From the NCBI GenBank assembly GCA_003021785.1, contig PXQU01000004.1:62001-126000 (forward strand): a DNA stretch of 64,000 nt. The letters run 5' to 3'. Position 1 is the stretch's first letter, and every line of letters begins with the position of its first letter. The stretch comes from Halobacteriales archaeon QH_7_65_31 (GTDB lineage: Archaea; Halobacteriota; Halobacteria; Halobacteriales; Haloarculaceae). A program made the position numbers and the translations under genes. A model generated the notes under the pieces. That model was not told the DNA's origin, did no database searches, and saw only the letters and a list, made by a program, of their open reading frames with translations. Shown here piece by piece: positions 4,301 to 51,110 of this stretch.

Positions 4301-4978
4301 ATGCTCGATACCGACCGGATTTCGACGCTCACGTTCGACTCCTACAGCACGATCGTCGATGTCGGCTCCGCCGTCGACGTGCTCGCCGGCCACGTCGCTG
4401 ACCCCGAACGCGTCGCCGAGCGATGGCGCTCGCAGTCGCTCCTCTACTCGGTGGTCGTCAACGACGTGGACAGCTACGAGCCGTTCTACGAGCTGAACCG
4501 TCGCGCGCTCGCTCACGCGCTCGAAACCGCCGGCGCAGACGTGACCGAGACGGAGCGCGAGGAGATTCTCTCGGTGTATCTGGATCTCCGCGTGTTTTCG
4601 GACGTGCGTGCCGGGCTCGACCGGCTCACCGAGGCGTACGACTGCTGGGTCGTCTCGAACGGCAACCCCGAGATGCTCGACCGAATGTTCGAGGTGGCCG
4701 ACCTCCACGACCGCGTCGAGGGGTACGTCAGCGCCGACGAGATCGGGACGTTCAAGCCGGACGGTGAGCTCTACCGCCACGCCGCCGCCCGGATCGGGAC
4801 GCCGATCGAGGAACTCGCACACGTCACGGCCGGCTGGTTCGACGTCGCGGGTGCGGAAGCCGCCGGAATGCAGGCCGTCTGGGTAAACCGCGACGGTGGC
4901 CCGTATCCGAACGTCGGCCCGGACCCGTCACTGGAGGTAGACTCGTTCACCGCGCTCGCGGACGAACTCGACCCGTAG
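4301..4978 (+). CDS. HAD-family hydrolase, L-2-haloacid dehalogenase-like
   Basis: A 225-residue HAD hydrolase. Motif I is TFDSYST with the nucleophile Asp13, the second motif is VVSNG, and the Lys is in FKPDGELY. The overall pattern, including HVTAGWFDVAGAEAAGM near the C-terminus, is that of type II haloacid dehalogenases. The Ser-Ser-Asn segment that binds substrate and water in true L-2-haloacid dehalogenases reads Thr-Ala-Gly here, so dehalogenase activity is doubtful; a phosphatase or other HAD reaction is possible. It stands alone, divergent from the aIF2 operon, with ATG only about 10 bp after a CCACGGCTAAG stretch. Confidence 0.85.
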   Translation: MLDTDRISTLTFDSYSTIVDVGSAVDVLAGHVADPERVAERWRSQSLLYSVVVNDVDSYEPFYELNRRALAHALETAGADVTETEREEILSVYLDLRVFSDVRAGLDRLTEAYDCWVVSNGNPEMLDRMFEVADLHDRVEGYVSADEIGTFKPDGELYRHAAARIGTPIEELAHVTAGWFDVAGAEAAGMQAVWVNRDGGPYPNVGPDPSLEVDSFTALADELDP

Positions 4979-28159: not shown

Positions 28160-28522
28160 ATGGTCGTCGATCTCGACGAGGCGTACGAGCAGATCGAGTC
28201 GCACTGGGACCCCCACGTCGCCGGCGAGCTGAACGGACAGCACGTGAAACTCGCCCGCGTCGAGGGTCGGTTCGACTGGCATCACCACGCCGAGAGCGAC
28301 GAGCTGTTCTTCGTCCACGAGGGCGAGCTGACGATTCGCTTCCGCGAGACCGAGGACGTGACGCTTCGGGCGGGACAGTTCCACGTCGTCCCGGCCGGCG
28401 TCGAACATCGGCCCGTCGCCGAGGAGGAGTGTCGGCTTCTGCTGTTCGAGCCGGCCGAAACGCGCAATACTGGCAACGTCGAGAGCGAGAAGACGGTACA
28501 GGAAGAGAAACACATCGAGTAG
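28160..28522 (+). CDS. Cupin-domain protein
   Basis: A 120-residue single cupin. Metal-binding pattern HHHAESDELFFVHEGE (His, His, Glu) and a second motif GQFHVVPAGVEHRPV (His) fit a mononuclear metal cupin. A charged tail follows (NVESEKTVQEEKHIE). It starts about 38 bp after the Nmad3-like gene and may be part of the same transcript. The substrate is not evident. It converges directly with the serine hydrolase gene, with no spacer. Confidence 0.88.
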   Translation: MVVDLDEAYEQIESHWDPHVAGELNGQHVKLARVEGRFDWHHHAESDELFFVHEGELTIRFRETEDVTLRAGQFHVVPAGVEHRPVAEEECRLLLFEPAETRNTGNVESEKTVQEEKHIE

Positions 28523-29656
28523 CTACTCGGCGCACATGGCCCGTACCGCGTCGGCGATCTGCGTGGTTCGGCTCCCGTGTTCGAACTCGTCGCGGATTCC
28601 GTTCGTCACATAGGCGGCGGCGATACCGCTTTCGGGATCGGCCCAGCCGAGACTGCTCCCCAGCCCACCGTGGCCGAAGACGTGATCGGGCGCGAACGTC
28701 CCGTACTTGTCCGTCGGATGCCCGGCGAGGAAGACGCCGAGCCCGTAGCGTGTCGGCGAGCCGAGCGTCCCGTCCGACTCGATCTCGACCTGACAGCTCG
28801 TCAGCTCGTCCACGACCGACTCGGAGAGCACACGCGTCCCGTCGAGGGTCCCGCCGTTGGCGAGACAGGCGTAAAACCGCGCCATATCGCTCGCCGTCCC
28901 GACGCCCGAGGCGGCCGGCACTTCTGCCCGGTGGACGTGCTCTTGGTTGAACAGCGCCGCCGCCTCGGCGTTCGTCATCGTCTTGAGGCCCGCGTCCGCG
29001 TCGCGACAGCGGTCGAACGACTCGAAGCCGACGAGCGTCGCCACGTCGTCCGCCTCCGACGCCGGGAGCCCGATGTGCGTATCGTCCATCCCCAGCGGAT
29101 CGAAGAGATGCTCACGAGCGTAGCTGCCGACCGTCTCGCCGGCGATTTCACGCACCAGCAGGCCGACGAGCCAGCCGTACGAGAGCGCGTGATACGCGGC
29201 CGTCTCACCGGGCGTGAACGACGGCTCTACGGTCGCGAGCAGCTCCGCGACCGCGTCCCAGTCACCCCACACGTCCGGGCGCTCGTCGACCGGGCTGGCC
29301 GGCACGCCCGCCTGATGGCTCAACACGTGACGGATCGTCGCCTCGTCTCGGGTCGAAGACGGGTCCGCGTACGCCGGCCAGTGGTCGGTCACCTTGTCGT
29401 CGTAGCTCGCCGCGCCCGCGTCGATCAGGTGGTGGAGACACGCACCGGCGTACGGCTTCGTACACGAGAAGAGCAGGTGCTTCCGATCGCTCGTCTCGGC
29501 GTCCCCGTCTGGTCCCGCTGTCCCTCCTGCGAAATCGACGACCTGCTCGCCGTCCTTGTACACTGCCAACTGCGCGCCGTGGTGGAGCCCGGCGTCGAGC
29601 TGGTGGTCGAACAGCTGTCTGAGCTCGGTCTTCCCGTCGACATTGAACACTGACAT
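28523..29656 (-). CDS. Serine hydrolase, class C beta-lactamase-like (esterase/PBP fold)
   Basis: A 377-residue cytoplasmic-looking enzyme with no signal peptide. The catalytic SxxK is SCTKPYAG, the Tyr motif YHALSYGWL (YxxS-type) and the third motif GHGGLGSS (HGG in place of KTG). These features match EstB-like esterases and class C-like hydrolases, which usually cleave short esters rather than beta-lactams. The start ATG is followed by MSVFNVDGKTELRQLF. Unknown natural substrate. Its upstream side marks the left boundary of the restriction-modification island. Confidence 0.87.
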   Translation of the reverse strand: MSVFNVDGKTELRQLFDHQLDAGLHHGAQLAVYKDGEQVVDFAGGTAGPDGDAETSDRKHLLFSCTKPYAGACLHHLIDAGAASYDDKVTDHWPAYADPSSTRDEATIRHVLSHQAGVPASPVDERPDVWGDWDAVAELLATVEPSFTPGETAAYHALSYGWLVGLLVREIAGETVGSYAREHLFDPLGMDDTHIGLPASEADDVATLVGFESFDRCRDADAGLKTMTNAEAAALFNQEHVHRAEVPAASGVGTASDMARFYACLANGGTLDGTRVLSESVVDELTSCQVEIESDGTLGSPTRYGLGVFLAGHPTDKYGTFAPDHVFGHGGLGSSLGWADPESGIAAAYVTNGIRDEFEHGSRTTQIADAVRAMCAE

Positions 29657-29789
29657 GGCTCCGTCTACGAGCCGTGGTAGATAAACATCGGTGACGGCGC
29701 ACAGCTACCACTACATCTACAGTCGGAGCACATATCGAAACTATCTGAGGAGCTGTACGCTCTGCTTCTGCCGGTGTCTCTGTTGTAGG

Positions 29790-29794
29790 TATAT
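29790..29794 (+). promoter_or_regulatory. TATA-like box of the endonuclease-like gene
   Basis: TATAT within TGTAGGTATATCG, centred about 26 bp before the TTG at 29818. The spacing supports a leaderless TTG start. TGTAGGTAT and GAGTTAGA both recur upstream of the winged-HTH gene at 31677. Confidence 0.45.
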
Positions 29795-29817
29795 CGAGTT
29801 AGATCGTATTAGCGGCA

Positions 29818-30564
29818 TTGTCACGAATCTCCGTACGTCGACTCGTGCGTACTCCCGAGTTTAACGACGACTGGTTCAACCCGAACGCGGATCTCCCGTA
29901 CGGCGTTGAACCTGACGAGATTCGAACGGCCATCGAACAGTTCTACGCGTTCTACGCCGATCTGAATCAGTTCCTGATGTGCGAGGACCACGGACGCATC
30001 GAGACGGTTCTGCGGGCGAACAACGCGCTCTCTGACTTCATCGGCAACGTTGCGACCGAAGAACTGGCACAGGCTAGTGACTCACTCATCATCAATCAGA
30101 AACAAGACGGCTTCCCCGATATTTTGCCGATCGATAACGAGACGTATGCCGATCAAGCGTACGAGATCCACCACGGTGGCGACGGAATCGAAACGAAATG
30201 TAGCAAATCAAGCGGCGGCTGGCAGGCACACAACAACGAGGAAGCTTGGTTTATCGTGTTCCGCTACGAGCGCGGTGATCCCGAGGACGAGATCGACGAG
30301 ATGGACCCGATTCGGTTAGTACAGGTCCTCGCTGGCCGTCTCAATGCCGACGACTGGTCACACTCTGGTCGGGGTGAAGACTCACGTCGGACTATCACGT
30401 CATCTATTATCTCCTCCGGGATGTACAAACTCCGCTCGAACCCCGTATACGAAGATCCTGCGGCGATTACGGGTCGCGGTACGGAACTCGTCGAATACAA
30501 GCAGCGACACGCTCAGTTCGATCCGGCGTTCGCAGATGCGCATCCGGAGTTCGTGACGGAGTAA
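29818..30564 (+). CDS. Putative type II restriction endonuclease (PD-(D/E)XK type)
   Basis: A 248-residue protein of lower GC than its surroundings. A possible nuclease site is Asp101 in DGFPDILP and E125-x-K127 in GIETKCSKSSGGW, a PD-x23-ExK arrangement. The rest is mixed helix/strand (AIEQFYAFYADLNQFL; GRGTELVEYKQRH at the end). It converges with a DNA methyltransferase gene 30 bp away, the classic restriction-modification layout, so it is called the endonuclease partner by sequence motif and context. Start TTG 29818 fits the TATA; GTG 29845 would remove nine residues. No family name could be assigned by eye. Confidence 0.7.
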   Translation: MSRISVRRLVRTPEFNDDWFNPNADLPYGVEPDEIRTAIEQFYAFYADLNQFLMCEDHGRIETVLRANNALSDFIGNVATEELAQASDSLIINQKQDGFPDILPIDNETYADQAYEIHHGGDGIETKCSKSSGGWQAHNNEEAWFIVFRYERGDPEDEIDEMDPIRLVQVLAGRLNADDWSHSGRGEDSRRTITSSIISSGMYKLRSNPVYEDPAAITGRGTELVEYKQRHAQFDPAFADAHPEFVTE

Positions 30565-30594
30565 CTGATCTCCTTCGAAAACTGATCATTTTAA

Positions 30595-31575
30595 CTACCG
30601 ATACTCGCTGAGAGAGTGTGACTCGGTCTGACGGCTCTGGATATCGTCTCGCCTCTCGACGTCTGTCGAAATCTCTGCGAGTCGAGGAATCGCGTTCTCG
30701 GCCATCTGATAGAACGTCTCGTCTAGCTCGATCCCAACTGCGTCGTAACCAAGCGCCTGAGCGGCTGCGATTGTTGATCCGGAACCCATAAACGGGTCTA
30801 AAATCGTTCCCCGCTGAAGGGGGAGCGACGCGTGACAGAGTTCGCGCATCAGGGACTGCGGCTTCAGGTTCGGATGCGCTTCCTGTTTCTCACCGTCTCC
30901 CGGATGGGCATTTCTCACGACTTCTGTCTCTGTCTTCGGCGTCTTTCCACCTTCGAGCAGGTCGGTAAACGGTCGCTCGCTCGACTCACGTCGGAGTCCG
31001 CCTGTCTGCCACTCGTCCAGATTTTCGTCTAAACGCCCATCGAACGGCTTTCGATACAGCAACCACGGCTCCCAGTACACCCGCGGCATCGAGGATACGC
31101 TTCGATACTCGGGGTGATCGTGTGATCCCTTTGGCCGGTCTCCCCCGCGAAGCGTCTTCGTCTCACGGATCAACACATCACGACGTTCCAGACCTGCCTC
31201 GTCGAGCTGATTGGAGACCTCGTGCATCAGTAGCTGCGTCGTCGCTAGGAAGACGTGACCTCCCGGTCTCAGTACACGTTCGACCGCTGTGCCGAACGTC
31301 TCGAAGAAGTTTCGCAGCTTCTGTTTGTCGCTCTCCGAGAGCGTCGTGAATCGAGGAAGCGGCTTCCGTTTCGATCCGTCCAGTTCAGGTGGGATTCGCC
31401 ACACACCGCCGACGCCATCCCGCATCTTCTCGATGTTCGCAGTTTCGAACTCGACGACCCCGTACGGTGGATCTGTTACCACTGCATGGATAGAGTTCTC
31501 GTCGAACTCCTCCAGCACCTCGAAGCAGTTGCCGTGACGTAGCTCATAGCTCATTGCTTGAGTACTCTGTCCCAT
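30595..31575 (-). CDS. Site-specific DNA methyltransferase, beta class
   Basis: A 326-residue S-adenosylmethionine-dependent amino-methyltransferase. Motif IV TDPPYGV (35-40) comes first, a long target-recognition region follows, and the SAM motif I DPFMGSGST (260-268) is near the C-terminus: the beta order, usual for N6-adenine or N4-cytosine enzymes (DPPY is commoner in N6-adenine ones). Other matches: RPGGHVFLATTQLL, and HPNLKPQSLMREL before motif I. A second ATG at 31554 begins MSYELRHGNCFEVL and has an A/T-rich TATA-like AGAATAAG about 31 bp upstream, so it may be the true start. It should protect the host from the convergent endonuclease. Confidence 0.9.
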   Translation of the reverse strand: MGQSTQAMSYELRHGNCFEVLEEFDENSIHAVVTDPPYGVVEFETANIEKMRDGVGGVWRIPPELDGSKRKPLPRFTTLSESDKQKLRNFFETFGTAVERVLRPGGHVFLATTQLLMHEVSNQLDEAGLERRDVLIRETKTLRGGDRPKGSHDHPEYRSVSSMPRVYWEPWLLYRKPFDGRLDENLDEWQTGGLRRESSERPFTDLLEGGKTPKTETEVVRNAHPGDGEKQEAHPNLKPQSLMRELCHASLPLQRGTILDPFMGSGSTIAAAQALGYDAVGIELDETFYQMAENAIPRLAEISTDVERRDDIQSRQTESHSLSEYR

Positions 31576-31676
31576 TGTGTCTTATTCTCTATCATTGTGT
31601 CCGCGGCGACGGTGTAAGTACTTTGAGTTAGAGTGTAGGTATTGGCATACGTAGCTGAAAGTAAGCTGCGTGCAAG

Positions 31677-31979
31677 ATGAGTCAAGTTGTCGACGATGCA
31701 TCGTTCGTTCTACGCTCGACAAACCGGACAGCGGTTCTTCGGCGGCTCTCCGAGGGAGCAGCTATTCCCTCACAGATCCGCGAGGCCACTGGACAAGCGT
31801 ACTCCCGTATCAGTGAAGCTGTGCACGCTCTCCGTGATCGTGATCTCATCGAACTCCTCGTGGACGAGGAGACGAAACGCGGCCGAGTGTACGCTATTAC
31901 GAGTAGAGGACGAGATGTCCTAGAATTCATGCACGAGAACAAGATGCTCGACGACGACTCCGACTACGGTCGTCGGTAG
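31677..31979 (+). CDS. Small winged-helix transcriptional regulator of the restriction-modification island
   Basis: A 100-residue wHTH protein. Helices VLRSTNRTAVLRRLSEG, the recognition region IPSQIREATGQAYSRISEAVHALRD and a wing with VDEETKRGRVYAITSRG; a short tail ends in YGRR. The fold is MarR/ArsR-like. It is divergent from the methyltransferase gene across 101 bp and sits between it and tRNA-Gly. By position it may control the restriction and methylation genes in the manner of a C protein (inference; classical C proteins are a different HTH family). Confidence 0.83.
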   Translation: MSQVVDDASFVLRSTNRTAVLRRLSEGAAIPSQIREATGQAYSRISEAVHALRDRDLIELLVDEETKRGRVYAITSRGRDVLEFMHENKMLDDDSDYGRR

Positions 31980-32039
31980 CTCGACTCTAACTGTCCGATC
32001 GAGTTCTAATGAGTAAGTATGTACTTCCTTCGAAAACCA

Positions 32040-32110
32040 TGTGCCGTCCGGGAATCGAACCCGGGCTATTAGCTTGGGAAGCTAATGTCCTACCACTGGA
32101 CCAACGGCAC
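32040..32110 (-). tRNA. tRNA-Gly (CCC anticodon)
   Basis: The minus strand folds as a 71-nt tRNA without intron: acceptor GTGCCGT paired with ACGGCAC plus discriminator A, D arm GTCC...GGAC, anticodon stem TTAGC/GCTAA around loop TTCCCAA (anticodon CCC), and T arm CCGGG-TTCGATT-CCCGG. No CCA is encoded. A run of four T follows the 3' end on the sense strand and may be the terminator. The restriction-modification island lies on its 3' side. Confidence 0.97.
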
Positions 32111-50033: not shown

Positions 50034-51110
50034 ATGAACGAGGAGTCGACTCAAGAGTACGTGACGACATCCAAGGCTGTACTCGACTCTTCCCCCCAGA
50101 TGGACGAAGCAAACACGAAGGCTGCTGTTCTCCGTGACTTTCTACGGCTTCTCGACTGGCAAATCCCTGAGAATACACAGCTTGAATACGCAGTCGAGGC
50201 GTTCGGGCAGGTTTACAAAGTTGATTACGCGTTGCTTCTCGAAGGGACACCGGTCGCGTTTCTCGAAGCGAAAGGTGCAGACACAGCCCTGAGCGGCAAT
50301 CACGAAGAACAGCTATCGTCGTATATGATGAACAAGAACGTCACCTACGGCATCCTCACGAACGGTAAACAGTACCGCTTCTTTCAGCGGCACGTGGACG
50401 CATCGGAAGTAACCGTCCAGCGGGTCGGTGACGTGGCTCTCACAGAGCTGCCCAATCACCTCTCTGTCCTGACGGCTTATGATAGAGAAGCCATCGAATC
50501 GGGTGAATCGGGGAAGATTCTCGGCCGGATTAATGAACTCCGCGAAGCCCGTCGAACCCTCGAAGCAGATAAAGAAGCGTTGACCGGTGAACTCTCGAAC
50601 GTATTGGTAGACAAGGTTTCTGACGCAATCTCGTCGCTCGCAGAAACGCAGGCGAAAGAGATGATAGACCGGCTTACTGAAGATATCAGCTCGGAGATTG
50701 ACGCCGATGGAGAGAAGACAAGACGGGCGATTACTGAACCAGACGTTTCTCTCAGTGAAAATCAAGATGTAGACGGAGAGTACGTCATTGAGCTGCAGAA
50801 GAACGGTGACTCTCTCGCTACGTTTGGTAGTAGCACTCAGAGCGACGTAATGGCTGACGCTGTGGACTACTTAGTTCGAAATCATAACCTGATCTCCCAG
50901 ATCGAACCACTGCCGTACGTCCCTGGAAATAAAAACGCCCTAATCAACGATCAGCCGACTCATCCCGATGAACGCGAGATGCGAACGTATCGCGACCTGA
51001 CAGACGGTTACTGTCTCTATACGAGCTTCAACAAGCAGGATAAGAAACGGCAGATACAACGATTAGCCAATAAATGCGGTGTAAACACTGAATCGAGTGG
51101 GAGCTGGTAG
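50034..51110 (+). CDS. Solitary HsdR N-terminal-type nuclease domain protein
   Basis: A 358-residue protein of lower GC than core genes. Residues about 25-150 are a type I restriction HsdR-N-like nuclease fold: VLRDFLRLLDWQIPEN, EYAVEAFGQVYKVDYALLLEG, VAFLEAKG with PD-(D/E)xK candidates D64, E78 and K80, and YGILTNGKQYRFFQR. A charged, probably coiled-coil middle (about 155-225; ELREARRTLEADKEALTGEL) leads to a C-terminal domain of about 110 residues, ending YCLYTSFNKQDKKRQIQRL. There is no helicase, HsdM or HsdS beside it, so it is an orphan nuclease, perhaps a defence remnant or a distinct solo family. Confidence 0.8.
   Translation: MNEESTQEYVTTSKAVLDSSPQMDEANTKAAVLRDFLRLLDWQIPENTQLEYAVEAFGQVYKVDYALLLEGTPVAFLEAKGADTALSGNHEEQLSSYMMNKNVTYGILTNGKQYRFFQRHVDASEVTVQRVGDVALTELPNHLSVLTAYDREAIESGESGKILGRINELREARRTLEADKEALTGELSNVLVDKVSDAISSLAETQAKEMIDRLTEDISSEIDADGEKTRRAITEPDVSLSENQDVDGEYVIELQKNGDSLATFGSSTQSDVMADAVDYLVRNHNLISQIEPLPYVPGNKNALINDQPTHPDEREMRTYRDLTDGYCLYTSFNKQDKKRQIQRLANKCGVNTESSGSW

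What the first reader, a model, noticed from the sequence alone, without database searches (positions are those of the whole stretch)
29657..32110. Compact restriction-modification island with its own regulator, inserted on the 3' side of tRNA-Gly
Convergent PD-(D/E)XK endonuclease-like and beta-class methyltransferase genes plus a 100-residue winged-helix protein sit between a core serine hydrolase gene and tRNA-Gly(CCC). The stretch has lower GC and different codon use than its neighbours, which suggests transfer. The endonuclease resembles no family I can name. The regulator type differs from classical C proteins.
Basis: partly seen in the sequence, partly recalled or inferred. Interest (0 to 1): 0.55.

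Follow-up and report, generated by a model that had tools for sequence, protein, structure and literature searches.

The report
Archaeal restriction-modification cassette with winged-helix controller
This salt-loving archaeon carries a small DNA-cutting and DNA-protecting gene pair together with a likely switch protein, and conserved DNA sites in front of both enzyme genes suggest that the switch protein controls when they are made.

Summary
R (29845-30564 +), M (30595-31575 -) and a winged-helix gene H (31677-31979 +) lie beside tRNA-Gly(CCC). R is a PD-(D/E)XK endonuclease by sequence: D92, E116 and K118 are invariant in 25 of 25 homologues; its predicted fold matches restriction enzymes weakly but consistently. 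M is a beta-class methyltransferase, probably m6A. In 392 genomes of the order, the 12 with R (57% identity or more) are the same 12 with M; all 12 have a winged-helix gene divergent from M. New here: GTARGTA-N14-GTARGTA sits between M and H, once in the whole genome, in 8 of 12 carriers and 0 of 12 non-carriers. The half-site recurs before R. Two related carriers with a diverged H have another repeat at both promoters. So H very likely controls R and M/H, like bacterial C proteins but with another fold. Corrections: the serine hydrolase is not core but part of the insertion; no integrase or att repeat was seen. Recognition site and sign of regulation remain unknown.

The parts
29845..30564 (+). 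R: 239-aa PD-(D/E)XK Type II endonuclease (alternative start TTG 29818)
   Evidence: invariant P91-D92, E116-x-K118, N84, H129 in 25/25 homologues; weak but consistent fold matches to NaeI, SwaI, EcoRV; PADLOC REase_II E 4.9e-8 over residues 22-102
30595..31575 (-). M: 326-aa beta-class DNA methyltransferase (DPPYG motif IV first, FMGSG motif I last)
   Evidence: PF01555 77.4 bits vs cut-off 26.7; PADLOC MTase_II 5.1e-82; alignment A2 of 20
31677..31979 (+). H: 100-aa winged-helix regulator, divergent from M
   Evidence: PF25213 HVO_A0261_N 37.4 vs cut-off 35; model matches MarR/ArsR/PadR/RosR proteins, none at E <= 0.001; a winged-helix gene at the same place in 12/12 loci
31614..31641 (+). 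candidate operator between M and H: GTAAGTA-N14-GTAGGTA, half-sites 31614-31620 and 31635-31641
   Evidence: only match in the 2.25 Mb genome; 8 of 12 carriers, 0 of 12 non-carriers
29785..29811 (+). candidate operator/promoter of R: GTAGGTA (29785-29791), then TATA-like GTATTA (29806-29811), ending 33 nt before the GTG start
   Evidence: GTARGTA (either strand) within 100 bp upstream of R in 9 of 10 loci (10 sites against 0.08 expected); GTATTA read by eye in the same stretch in 9 of 10
28523..29656 (-). serine hydrolase (PF00144), part of the inserted segment, not core
   Evidence: absent from 5/5 other genomes of the genus searched; flanking genes conserved there
28523..32035 (.). inserted segment between cupin gene (28160-28522) and tRNA-Gly; right edge uncertain by several bp
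   Evidence: 30 bp in its place in G561 and G624
32040..32110 (-). tRNA-Gly(CCC), intact flank
   Evidence: ARAGORN

Best explanation
A complete Type II restriction-modification cassette under the control of its own winged-helix regulator. M methylates a short DNA site (probably on adenine); R, a PD-(D/E)XK nuclease with an EcoRV/NaeI/PvuII-like predicted fold, cuts that site when it is unmethylated. H binds direct repeats (GTARGTA half-sites one 21-bp step apart) in the shared M-H promoter region and a related array next to the R promoter, and so co-ordinates the genes. The likeliest circuit is C-protein logic: on entry into a new host M is made first from its own promoter; H then accumulates, autoregulates, limits M and switches R on. 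Shown by sequence: enzyme families, conserved catalytic residues, linkage, conserved operator-like repeats at both promoters, and their change together with H. Inferred: that H binds them, the order and sign of regulation, m6A rather than m4C, and activity. Unknown: the recognition site.
For: Catalytic residues invariant in 25/25 homologues including paralogues. First 45 rows of VIA-align are restriction enzymes, NaeI Z 9.3; Foldseek ranks 1-34 are EcoRV and NlaIV. R and M orthologues in the same 12 of 392 genomes. Adjacent in 7 of 7 plasmid loci opened, of 19 records; R beside 13 of 17 full-length M relatives on viral contigs. H orthologue in 10/12 loci and a diverged one in the other 2. Operator pair: unique in G000; 8 of 12 carriers, once each, every one between M and H; 0 of 12 non-carriers; reversed-pattern control 0 in all 24. 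GTARGTA: 29 in 2,097 bp of M-H and R-upstream DNA of 10 loci against 14 in 173,545 bp elsewhere in those loci. The first repeat lies 61-63 bp from the H start in 9/10 loci. With the diverged H, TGATAA-N6-GATA stands at both promoters in 2/2 loci and 0 times in 1.264 Mb of other sequence; in the whole genomes 2 of 2 (G427) and 2 of 3 (G435) matches are those sites.
Against: Foldseek has no match at E <= 0.001 and TM about 0.33; Z below 8 may mean only a common arrangement, by VIA-align's own note. No activity, methylome or binding data. Four of 12 carriers lack the exact operator pair: two with the strongly diverged H (G427, G435), two with a moderately diverged H (G497, G502). Part of the conservation may be shared descent: the 12 loci are related, and the two loci with the diverged H are close relatives (one event). 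The TGATAA pattern is not rare as such: four other genomes of that family have 0, 2, 3 and 0 matches, and the reversed control 0-2. No palindrome is avoided specifically in carriers, so restriction in vivo has no genomic footprint found here. The H family is broad (153 of 392 genomes at E <= 1e-8), and of 20 non-cassette members examined none showed an R-M pair beside it.
Confidence: 0.82

Rival explanations
1. Active R-M pair, but H regulates something else or only itself; the repeats are core-promoter elements conserved by descent.
For: H belongs to a large haloarchaeal winged-helix family, and 20 non-cassette members examined were not beside R-M pairs; R's GTATTA looks like a TATA box.
Against: The exact pair is found nowhere else in 24 genomes, unlike a core promoter element; the half-site is repeated before R 1.8 kb away; diverged H goes with a different repeat at both promoters.
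Confidence: 0.12
2. Decayed or orphan system: M active as an epigenetic methyltransferase, R no longer cutting.
For: Many haloarchaeal Type II methyltransferases are orphans (PMC10609329 and PMC6471742, passages read); no site avoidance in carriers; the R frame in G395 is interrupted near its start.
Against: R of the window is intact with all invariant residues; R and M orthologues are never separated in the 392 genomes searched.
Confidence: 0.1
3. Integrative element that uses the tRNA-Gly 3' end as attachment site.
For: The insert ends within about 10 bp of the tRNA.
Against: None of the four genes of the insert is an integrase, no tRNA 3' copy and no shared direct repeat at the junctions; L002 carries the cassette in another context, beside an ORF read by eye as endonuclease III.
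Confidence: 0.04

Closest known systems
Type II R-M systems with a C (controller) protein, e.g. PvuII, Esp1396I, Kpn2I (names from the listing and passages)
   Same: small dedicated DNA-binding protein beside R and M; repeated operator-like sites at the promoters; expected delay of R
   Different: C proteins are cI-like HTH proteins typically encoded upstream of R (PMC12255303, passages); H is a MarR/ArsR-like winged helix divergent from M, with a separate site before the distant R gene
Acidiphilium plasmid pACMV5 system (L008)
   Same: R (35% identity) convergent with M (44%)
   Different: an HTH_3 C-like gene overlaps the start of R: same enzymes, other regulator
Small-plasmid systems of Pseudomonas (L010), Citrobacter (L011) and a Rhizobium plasmid (L012)
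   Same: R 26-29%, M 48-50%, convergent
   Different: no separate regulator annotated directly beside them (PLSDB annotation is incomplete); M carries an extra ~80-residue N-terminal stretch, as M.SsoII carries a regulatory N-terminus (PMC3978073, start of abstract only); that stretch has no Pfam match of its own in L011 and L012
NaeI, SwaI, EcoRV, HincII, PvuII nucleases
   Same: predicted fold and PD...ExK layout
   Different: 9-15% identity in the structural alignments; no convincing sequence match in the PDB
RptR repressor of R-M defence islands (PMC12255303)
   Same: non-C regulator of R-M genes
   Different: controls a bacterial hsdM-containing island; the word 'winged' does not occur in the text

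Membership tests
Type II restriction-modification system | separate, linked endonuclease and methyltransferase genes | tested here: met
   12 of 12 carriers in 392 genomes
Type II restriction-modification system | both enzymes act on the same site; methylation blocks cutting | not testable with these tools
   needs methylome and cleavage assays
PD-(D/E)XK endonuclease | conserved P-D ... (D/E)-x-K on adjacent strands | tested here: met
   invariant in 25/25; D92 just before strand 93-95, E116 and K118 on strand 115-121 of the model
EcoRV-like restriction enzyme family | significant structural or sequence match | tested here: inconclusive
   Foldseek best E 1.7e-3, TM 0.33; Z 7.0 to EcoRV, 9.3 to NaeI
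PADLOC REase_II PDLC03564 | profile match over the whole protein | tested here: inconclusive
   E 4.9e-8 but only residues 22-102 of 239; 18 of 25 relatives match at E <= 0.01
beta-class amino methyltransferase (PF01555) | above curated cut-off, catalytic DPPY before the AdoMet FxGxG motif | tested here: met
   77.4 vs 26.7 bits; DPPY at 35-38, FMGSG at 262-266
C (controller) protein | cI/HTH_3-type fold | tested here: not met
   no HTH_3 match among 14 Pfam families listed for H at E <= 1; winged-helix matches
C (controller) protein | works like one: sites at its own and the R promoter | tested here: inconclusive
   operator-like repeats at both places; binding not tested
HVO_A0261_N (PF25213) | score above gathering cut-off | tested here: met
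   37.4 vs 35 for the window and for L015; 29.3, below, for L067
tRNA-integrated genomic island | integrase gene and att repeats at the tRNA 3' end | tested here: not met
   none found

The most novel reading that the evidence does not exclude
An archaeal counterpart of bacterial C proteins: a winged-helix protein, recruited from a common haloarchaeal regulator family, that times a Type II R-M system through helically phased direct repeats at both promoters. The same R/M pair goes with an HTH_3 C-like protein in Acidiphilium, perhaps with an N-terminal extension of M in other bacteria, and with this winged helix in haloarchaea, so regulators were swapped while the enzymes were kept. In some haloarchaea a second R paralogue with intact catalytic residues is adjacent to or overlaps R, which could make a two-subunit nuclease.
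Probability: 0.55. Interest if true: 0.6.

Novelty: new variant of a known kind. Interest (0 to 1): 0.45.

Why it matters
How restriction genes are timed when they enter a new cell has been studied mainly in bacteria; the rows shown by the searches (28 rows) include no paper on a dedicated controller of an archaeal R-M system. Here the regulator, its likely operators at both promoters, and a natural pair of regulator and operator variants are in hand, so the question can be tested directly in a transformable haloarchaeon. It also shows one enzyme pair spread over bacterial plasmids, viral contigs and archaea while its neighbouring regulator changes.

Tried and rejected
Recognition site by avoidance: observed/expected counts of all 4- and 6-base palindromes in 5 carriers (the 64-kb window for G000; 200 kb each for G318, G429, G445, G497) against G561 and G166 (200 kb each) and a pool of five stretches of 14-19 kb showed no palindrome low in all five carriers and not in the others; CTAG is low in both groups. 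Other kinds of site were not tested.

Tree evidence for transfer of the window copy: M tree of 17 rows; one clade of the window with its genus mate (p-AU 0.242) or with its family (0.158) is not rejected. Only the G318 (f3) + G429 (f6) pairing is starred among such mixed groups, 99/95. Transfer into this genome therefore rests on the near-empty site, composition and patchy presence.

Insertion into the tRNA: no tRNA 3' copy, no direct repeat at the junctions. 'Core' serine hydrolase: rejected.

H family as a general R-M regulator: for 20 non-cassette H paralogues out of the longer list, the four nearest ORFs each (80 proteins) were scanned. Pfam: DUF7344 in 10, HalOD1 in 8, RdfA in 4 (first 25 of 55 families shown); PADLOC at 1e-10: 16 families, among them one mads_2 (methyltransferase-like), LmuB and Cas12f-type hits, no REase_II or MTase_II. 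Rejected.

R in phage records: no match in 50,697 records. Viral contigs with the haloarchaeal R alignment A3 or the R2 alignment A5: none. E. coli genomes: no match for the Citrobacter pair. R against PDB sequences: nothing convincing. In the phylum sample of 392 genomes R matched 5, one of them (G147) outside the order. The specificity of a named REBASE homologue could not be looked up; the paper search brought none.

Rows dropped: G395 (L071) R left out of alignments A1 and A3 and of the R profile because its frame is interrupted (its upstream region was kept); the H rows of L068 and L070 left out of the H profile because my extended frames ran past a stop; L113 not counted among full-length M relatives. 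Viral loci L100 and L111 look like the same contig region and were both counted. L066 and L002 are the same contig, counted once among carriers.
Full report
What is there. The window is haloarchaeal by its gene content (my reading; G000, 2.25 Mb, 16 contigs). Between the cupin gene (28160-28522) and tRNA-Gly(CCC) (32040-32110, minus strand) lie a serine hydrolase (28523-29656, minus), R (29845-30564, plus), M (30595-31575, minus) and H (31677-31979, plus). R and M converge; M and H diverge over 101 bp. The cassette has GC 0.553 against 0.659 for the window, and GC3 0.58-0.67 against a mean of 0.82. The hydrolase has host-like GC3 (0.865).

Insertion. The hydrolase is absent from 5 of 5 other genomes of the genus searched, one of them only 67% complete. 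In G561 and G624 the cupin stop and the tRNA are 30 bp apart; in G502 and G704 about 53 and 42 bp; in G703 about 535 bp of other sequence. R itself is absent from four of those five (G561, G624; G703, G704; the tool warns that this last blank has no positive control, and G704 is incomplete). So about 3.5 kb, hydrolase included, was inserted here, in one event or two. No integrase, tRNA remnant or direct repeat was found. G502, of the same genus, carries the cassette on another contig than its tRNA-Gly.

R. No Pfam or NCBIfam family matches the window protein; among 25 relatives Pfam gave only stray hits, best E 0.008. PADLOC's REase_II model PDLC03564 matches residues 22-102 (E 4.9e-8) and 18 of 25 relatives. 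In alignment A1 (25 sequences from haloarchaea, another archaeal lineage and bacterial plasmids) eight positions are invariant: P18, N84, P91, D92, G114, E116, K118, H129. The AlphaFold model (14 sequences, pLDDT 82.3) puts E116 and K118 on one strand and D92 just before the other. Foldseek's first 34 PDB matches are EcoRV (33; three of them by recall, as their titles do not name the enzyme) and NlaIV (1), at E 1.7e-3 or worse. VIA-align gives NaeI Z 9.3, SwaI 7.5, EcoRV 7.0, then DpnI, SfiI, BglI, HincII, PvuII; the first 45 of 50 rows shown are restriction enzymes. Single scores are weak (the tool warns that Z under 8 may mean little); the agreement is what tells.

M. PF01555 (77.4 bits; cut-off 26.7), PADLOC MTase_II E 5e-82. 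Motif IV DPPYG comes first and FMGSG last, the beta order. DPPY rather than SPPY favours m6A (recalled knowledge of the families, not tested). The middle, target-recognition part is strongly conserved between archaea and bacteria (overall identity to the eight homologues outside the order 46-50%, and 44% for Acidiphilium), which hints at a shared target.

Linkage. In 392 genomes of the order, R at 57% identity or more occurs in 12 and M at 70% or more in the same 12; two further genomes (G084, G166) hold only an R2-like gene (36-37%). In all 12 R and M are convergent; in 4 a second R gene, and in one (G435) a remnant of it, lies between. Plasmid relatives (19 records; 7 opened): R beside a DNA methyltransferase in 7 of 7, convergent in 6, tandem in the M. 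avium plasmid. G147, outside the order, has them divergent. On viral contigs 13 of 17 full-length M relatives have R beside them, 1 a weak match and 3 none within the stretch fetched (two of the 13 look like the same region).

H and its sites. H is a winged helix: HVO_A0261_N above cut-off and a model (two sequences, pLDDT 73.6 for the best of five, 41-58 for the others) whose matches are MarR, ArsR, PadR and RosR proteins, none at E <= 0.001. Ten of 12 loci carry an orthologue at 46-100% identity. The other two (L072, L073) have a diverged one at the same place (for L072: alignment score 132; best of 500 shuffles 51). The M-H spacer holds GTARGTA twice with a 21-bp step in 8 of 10 H-orthologue loci; in L070 one half-site is changed, and in L068 the second is missing. 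The first repeat is 61-63 bp from the H start in 9 of 10 loci while its distance to M varies from 28 to 61 bp. As a pattern the pair occurs once in the 2.25 Mb genome and, over 24 genomes, in 8 of 12 carriers, once each and every time between M and H, in 0 of 12 non-carriers, with 0 matches of the reversed control. All 12 non-carriers lack an R orthologue, though G084 and G166 carry the R2-like gene. The half-site recurs within 100 bp upstream of R: 10 in 1,000 bp against 0.08 expected, in 9 of 10 loci; all sites together 29 in 2,097 bp against 14 in 173,545 bp. A TATA-like GTATTA is visible there in 9 of 10.

Co-variation. In L072 and L073, where H is diverged, the GTARGTA pair is missing; TGATAA-N6-GATA stands instead once before R and once between M and H, in the same orientation, and nowhere in 1.264 Mb from other genomes. 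In the whole genomes the counts are 2 (both here) in G427 and 3 (two here) in G435, with 0 for the reversed control; four other genomes of that family have 0, 2, 3 and 0, reversed control 0, 2, 0 and 2 in the same order (G423, G190, G298, G415). So the pattern is not unique, but its doubling at the two promoters is. The two loci are close relatives and count as one event. This is the strongest sign that H reads these sites.

How it works. Shown: families, catalytic residues, linkage, operator-like repeats. Inferred: H binds them; because half-sites lie upstream of R's TATA-like box and between M and H, the best guess is autoregulation with activation of R and restraint of M, as for C proteins, which act as activator/repressors on their own, the R or the M gene (PMC3874152, passages). 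A pure repressor of all three is the main alternative. H belongs to a broad haloarchaeal family (153 of 392 genomes at E <= 1e-8; the ten best are the cassette copies); 20 other members examined were not beside R-M pairs, so it looks recruited.

Comparison. C proteins resemble the lambda cI HTH repressor and typically stand upstream of R (PMC12255303, passages). Acidiphilium's relative has such a gene (HTH_3, 73 aa) overlapping R. The Pseudomonas, Citrobacter and Rhizobium relatives opened have no regulator annotated directly beside them but a longer M N-terminus. The archaeal R-M survey (PMC10609329, abstract and passages) says that its own library caught only three Type II endonuclease groups and that most such genes fell into 'Other'. 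The rows shown by searches 72, 93 and 98 include nothing on a dedicated controller of an archaeal R-M system; REBASE and subscription journals were not searched.

Verdict. A real, probably working Type II R-M cassette; ordinary in its enzymes, unusual in its controller.

Noticed in passing
L015:7545-8318, L064:7379-8101, L068:6632-7459, L072:6918-7739; remnant in L073: A second PD-(D/E)XK gene (R2, 29-37% identical to R, catalytic residues kept) directly follows or overlaps R in four haloarchaeal loci; possible partner subunit or second nuclease.
   Followed up: partly
L017:4118-7399 and L018:4120-7401: R2-like gene without R or M orthologue, behind a C5-cytosine methyltransferase (PF00145, scanned in L017) and a ~400-aa protein with a VEVK stretch: possibly another R-M system that uses the same nuclease family.
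   Followed up: partly
window 50034-51110 +: 358-aa ORF with HSDR_N/HSDR_N_2 domain, GC3 0.579 (lowest of 49 ORFs over 450 bp), about 1 kb from tRNA-Thr: a stand-alone restriction-like nuclease, probably acquired.
   Followed up: partly
L071 about 4348-4416: R of G395 is split between two frames near its N-terminus: a broken or misassembled copy beside an intact M.
   Followed up: no
L010, L011, L012 M genes: Extra ~80-residue N-terminal stretch on these bacterial M proteins, absent from the haloarchaeal ones aligned; no Pfam match for it in L011 and L012; may stand in for the regulator.
   Followed up: partly
L015:8897-9151 and L017:3720-3977: By eye similar ~85-aa unknown proteins near R2-containing loci in different genomes; no Pfam hit for the one scanned.
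   Followed up: no
window 32013: A single extra GTARGTA between the end of H and the tRNA; not checked in relatives.
   Followed up: no
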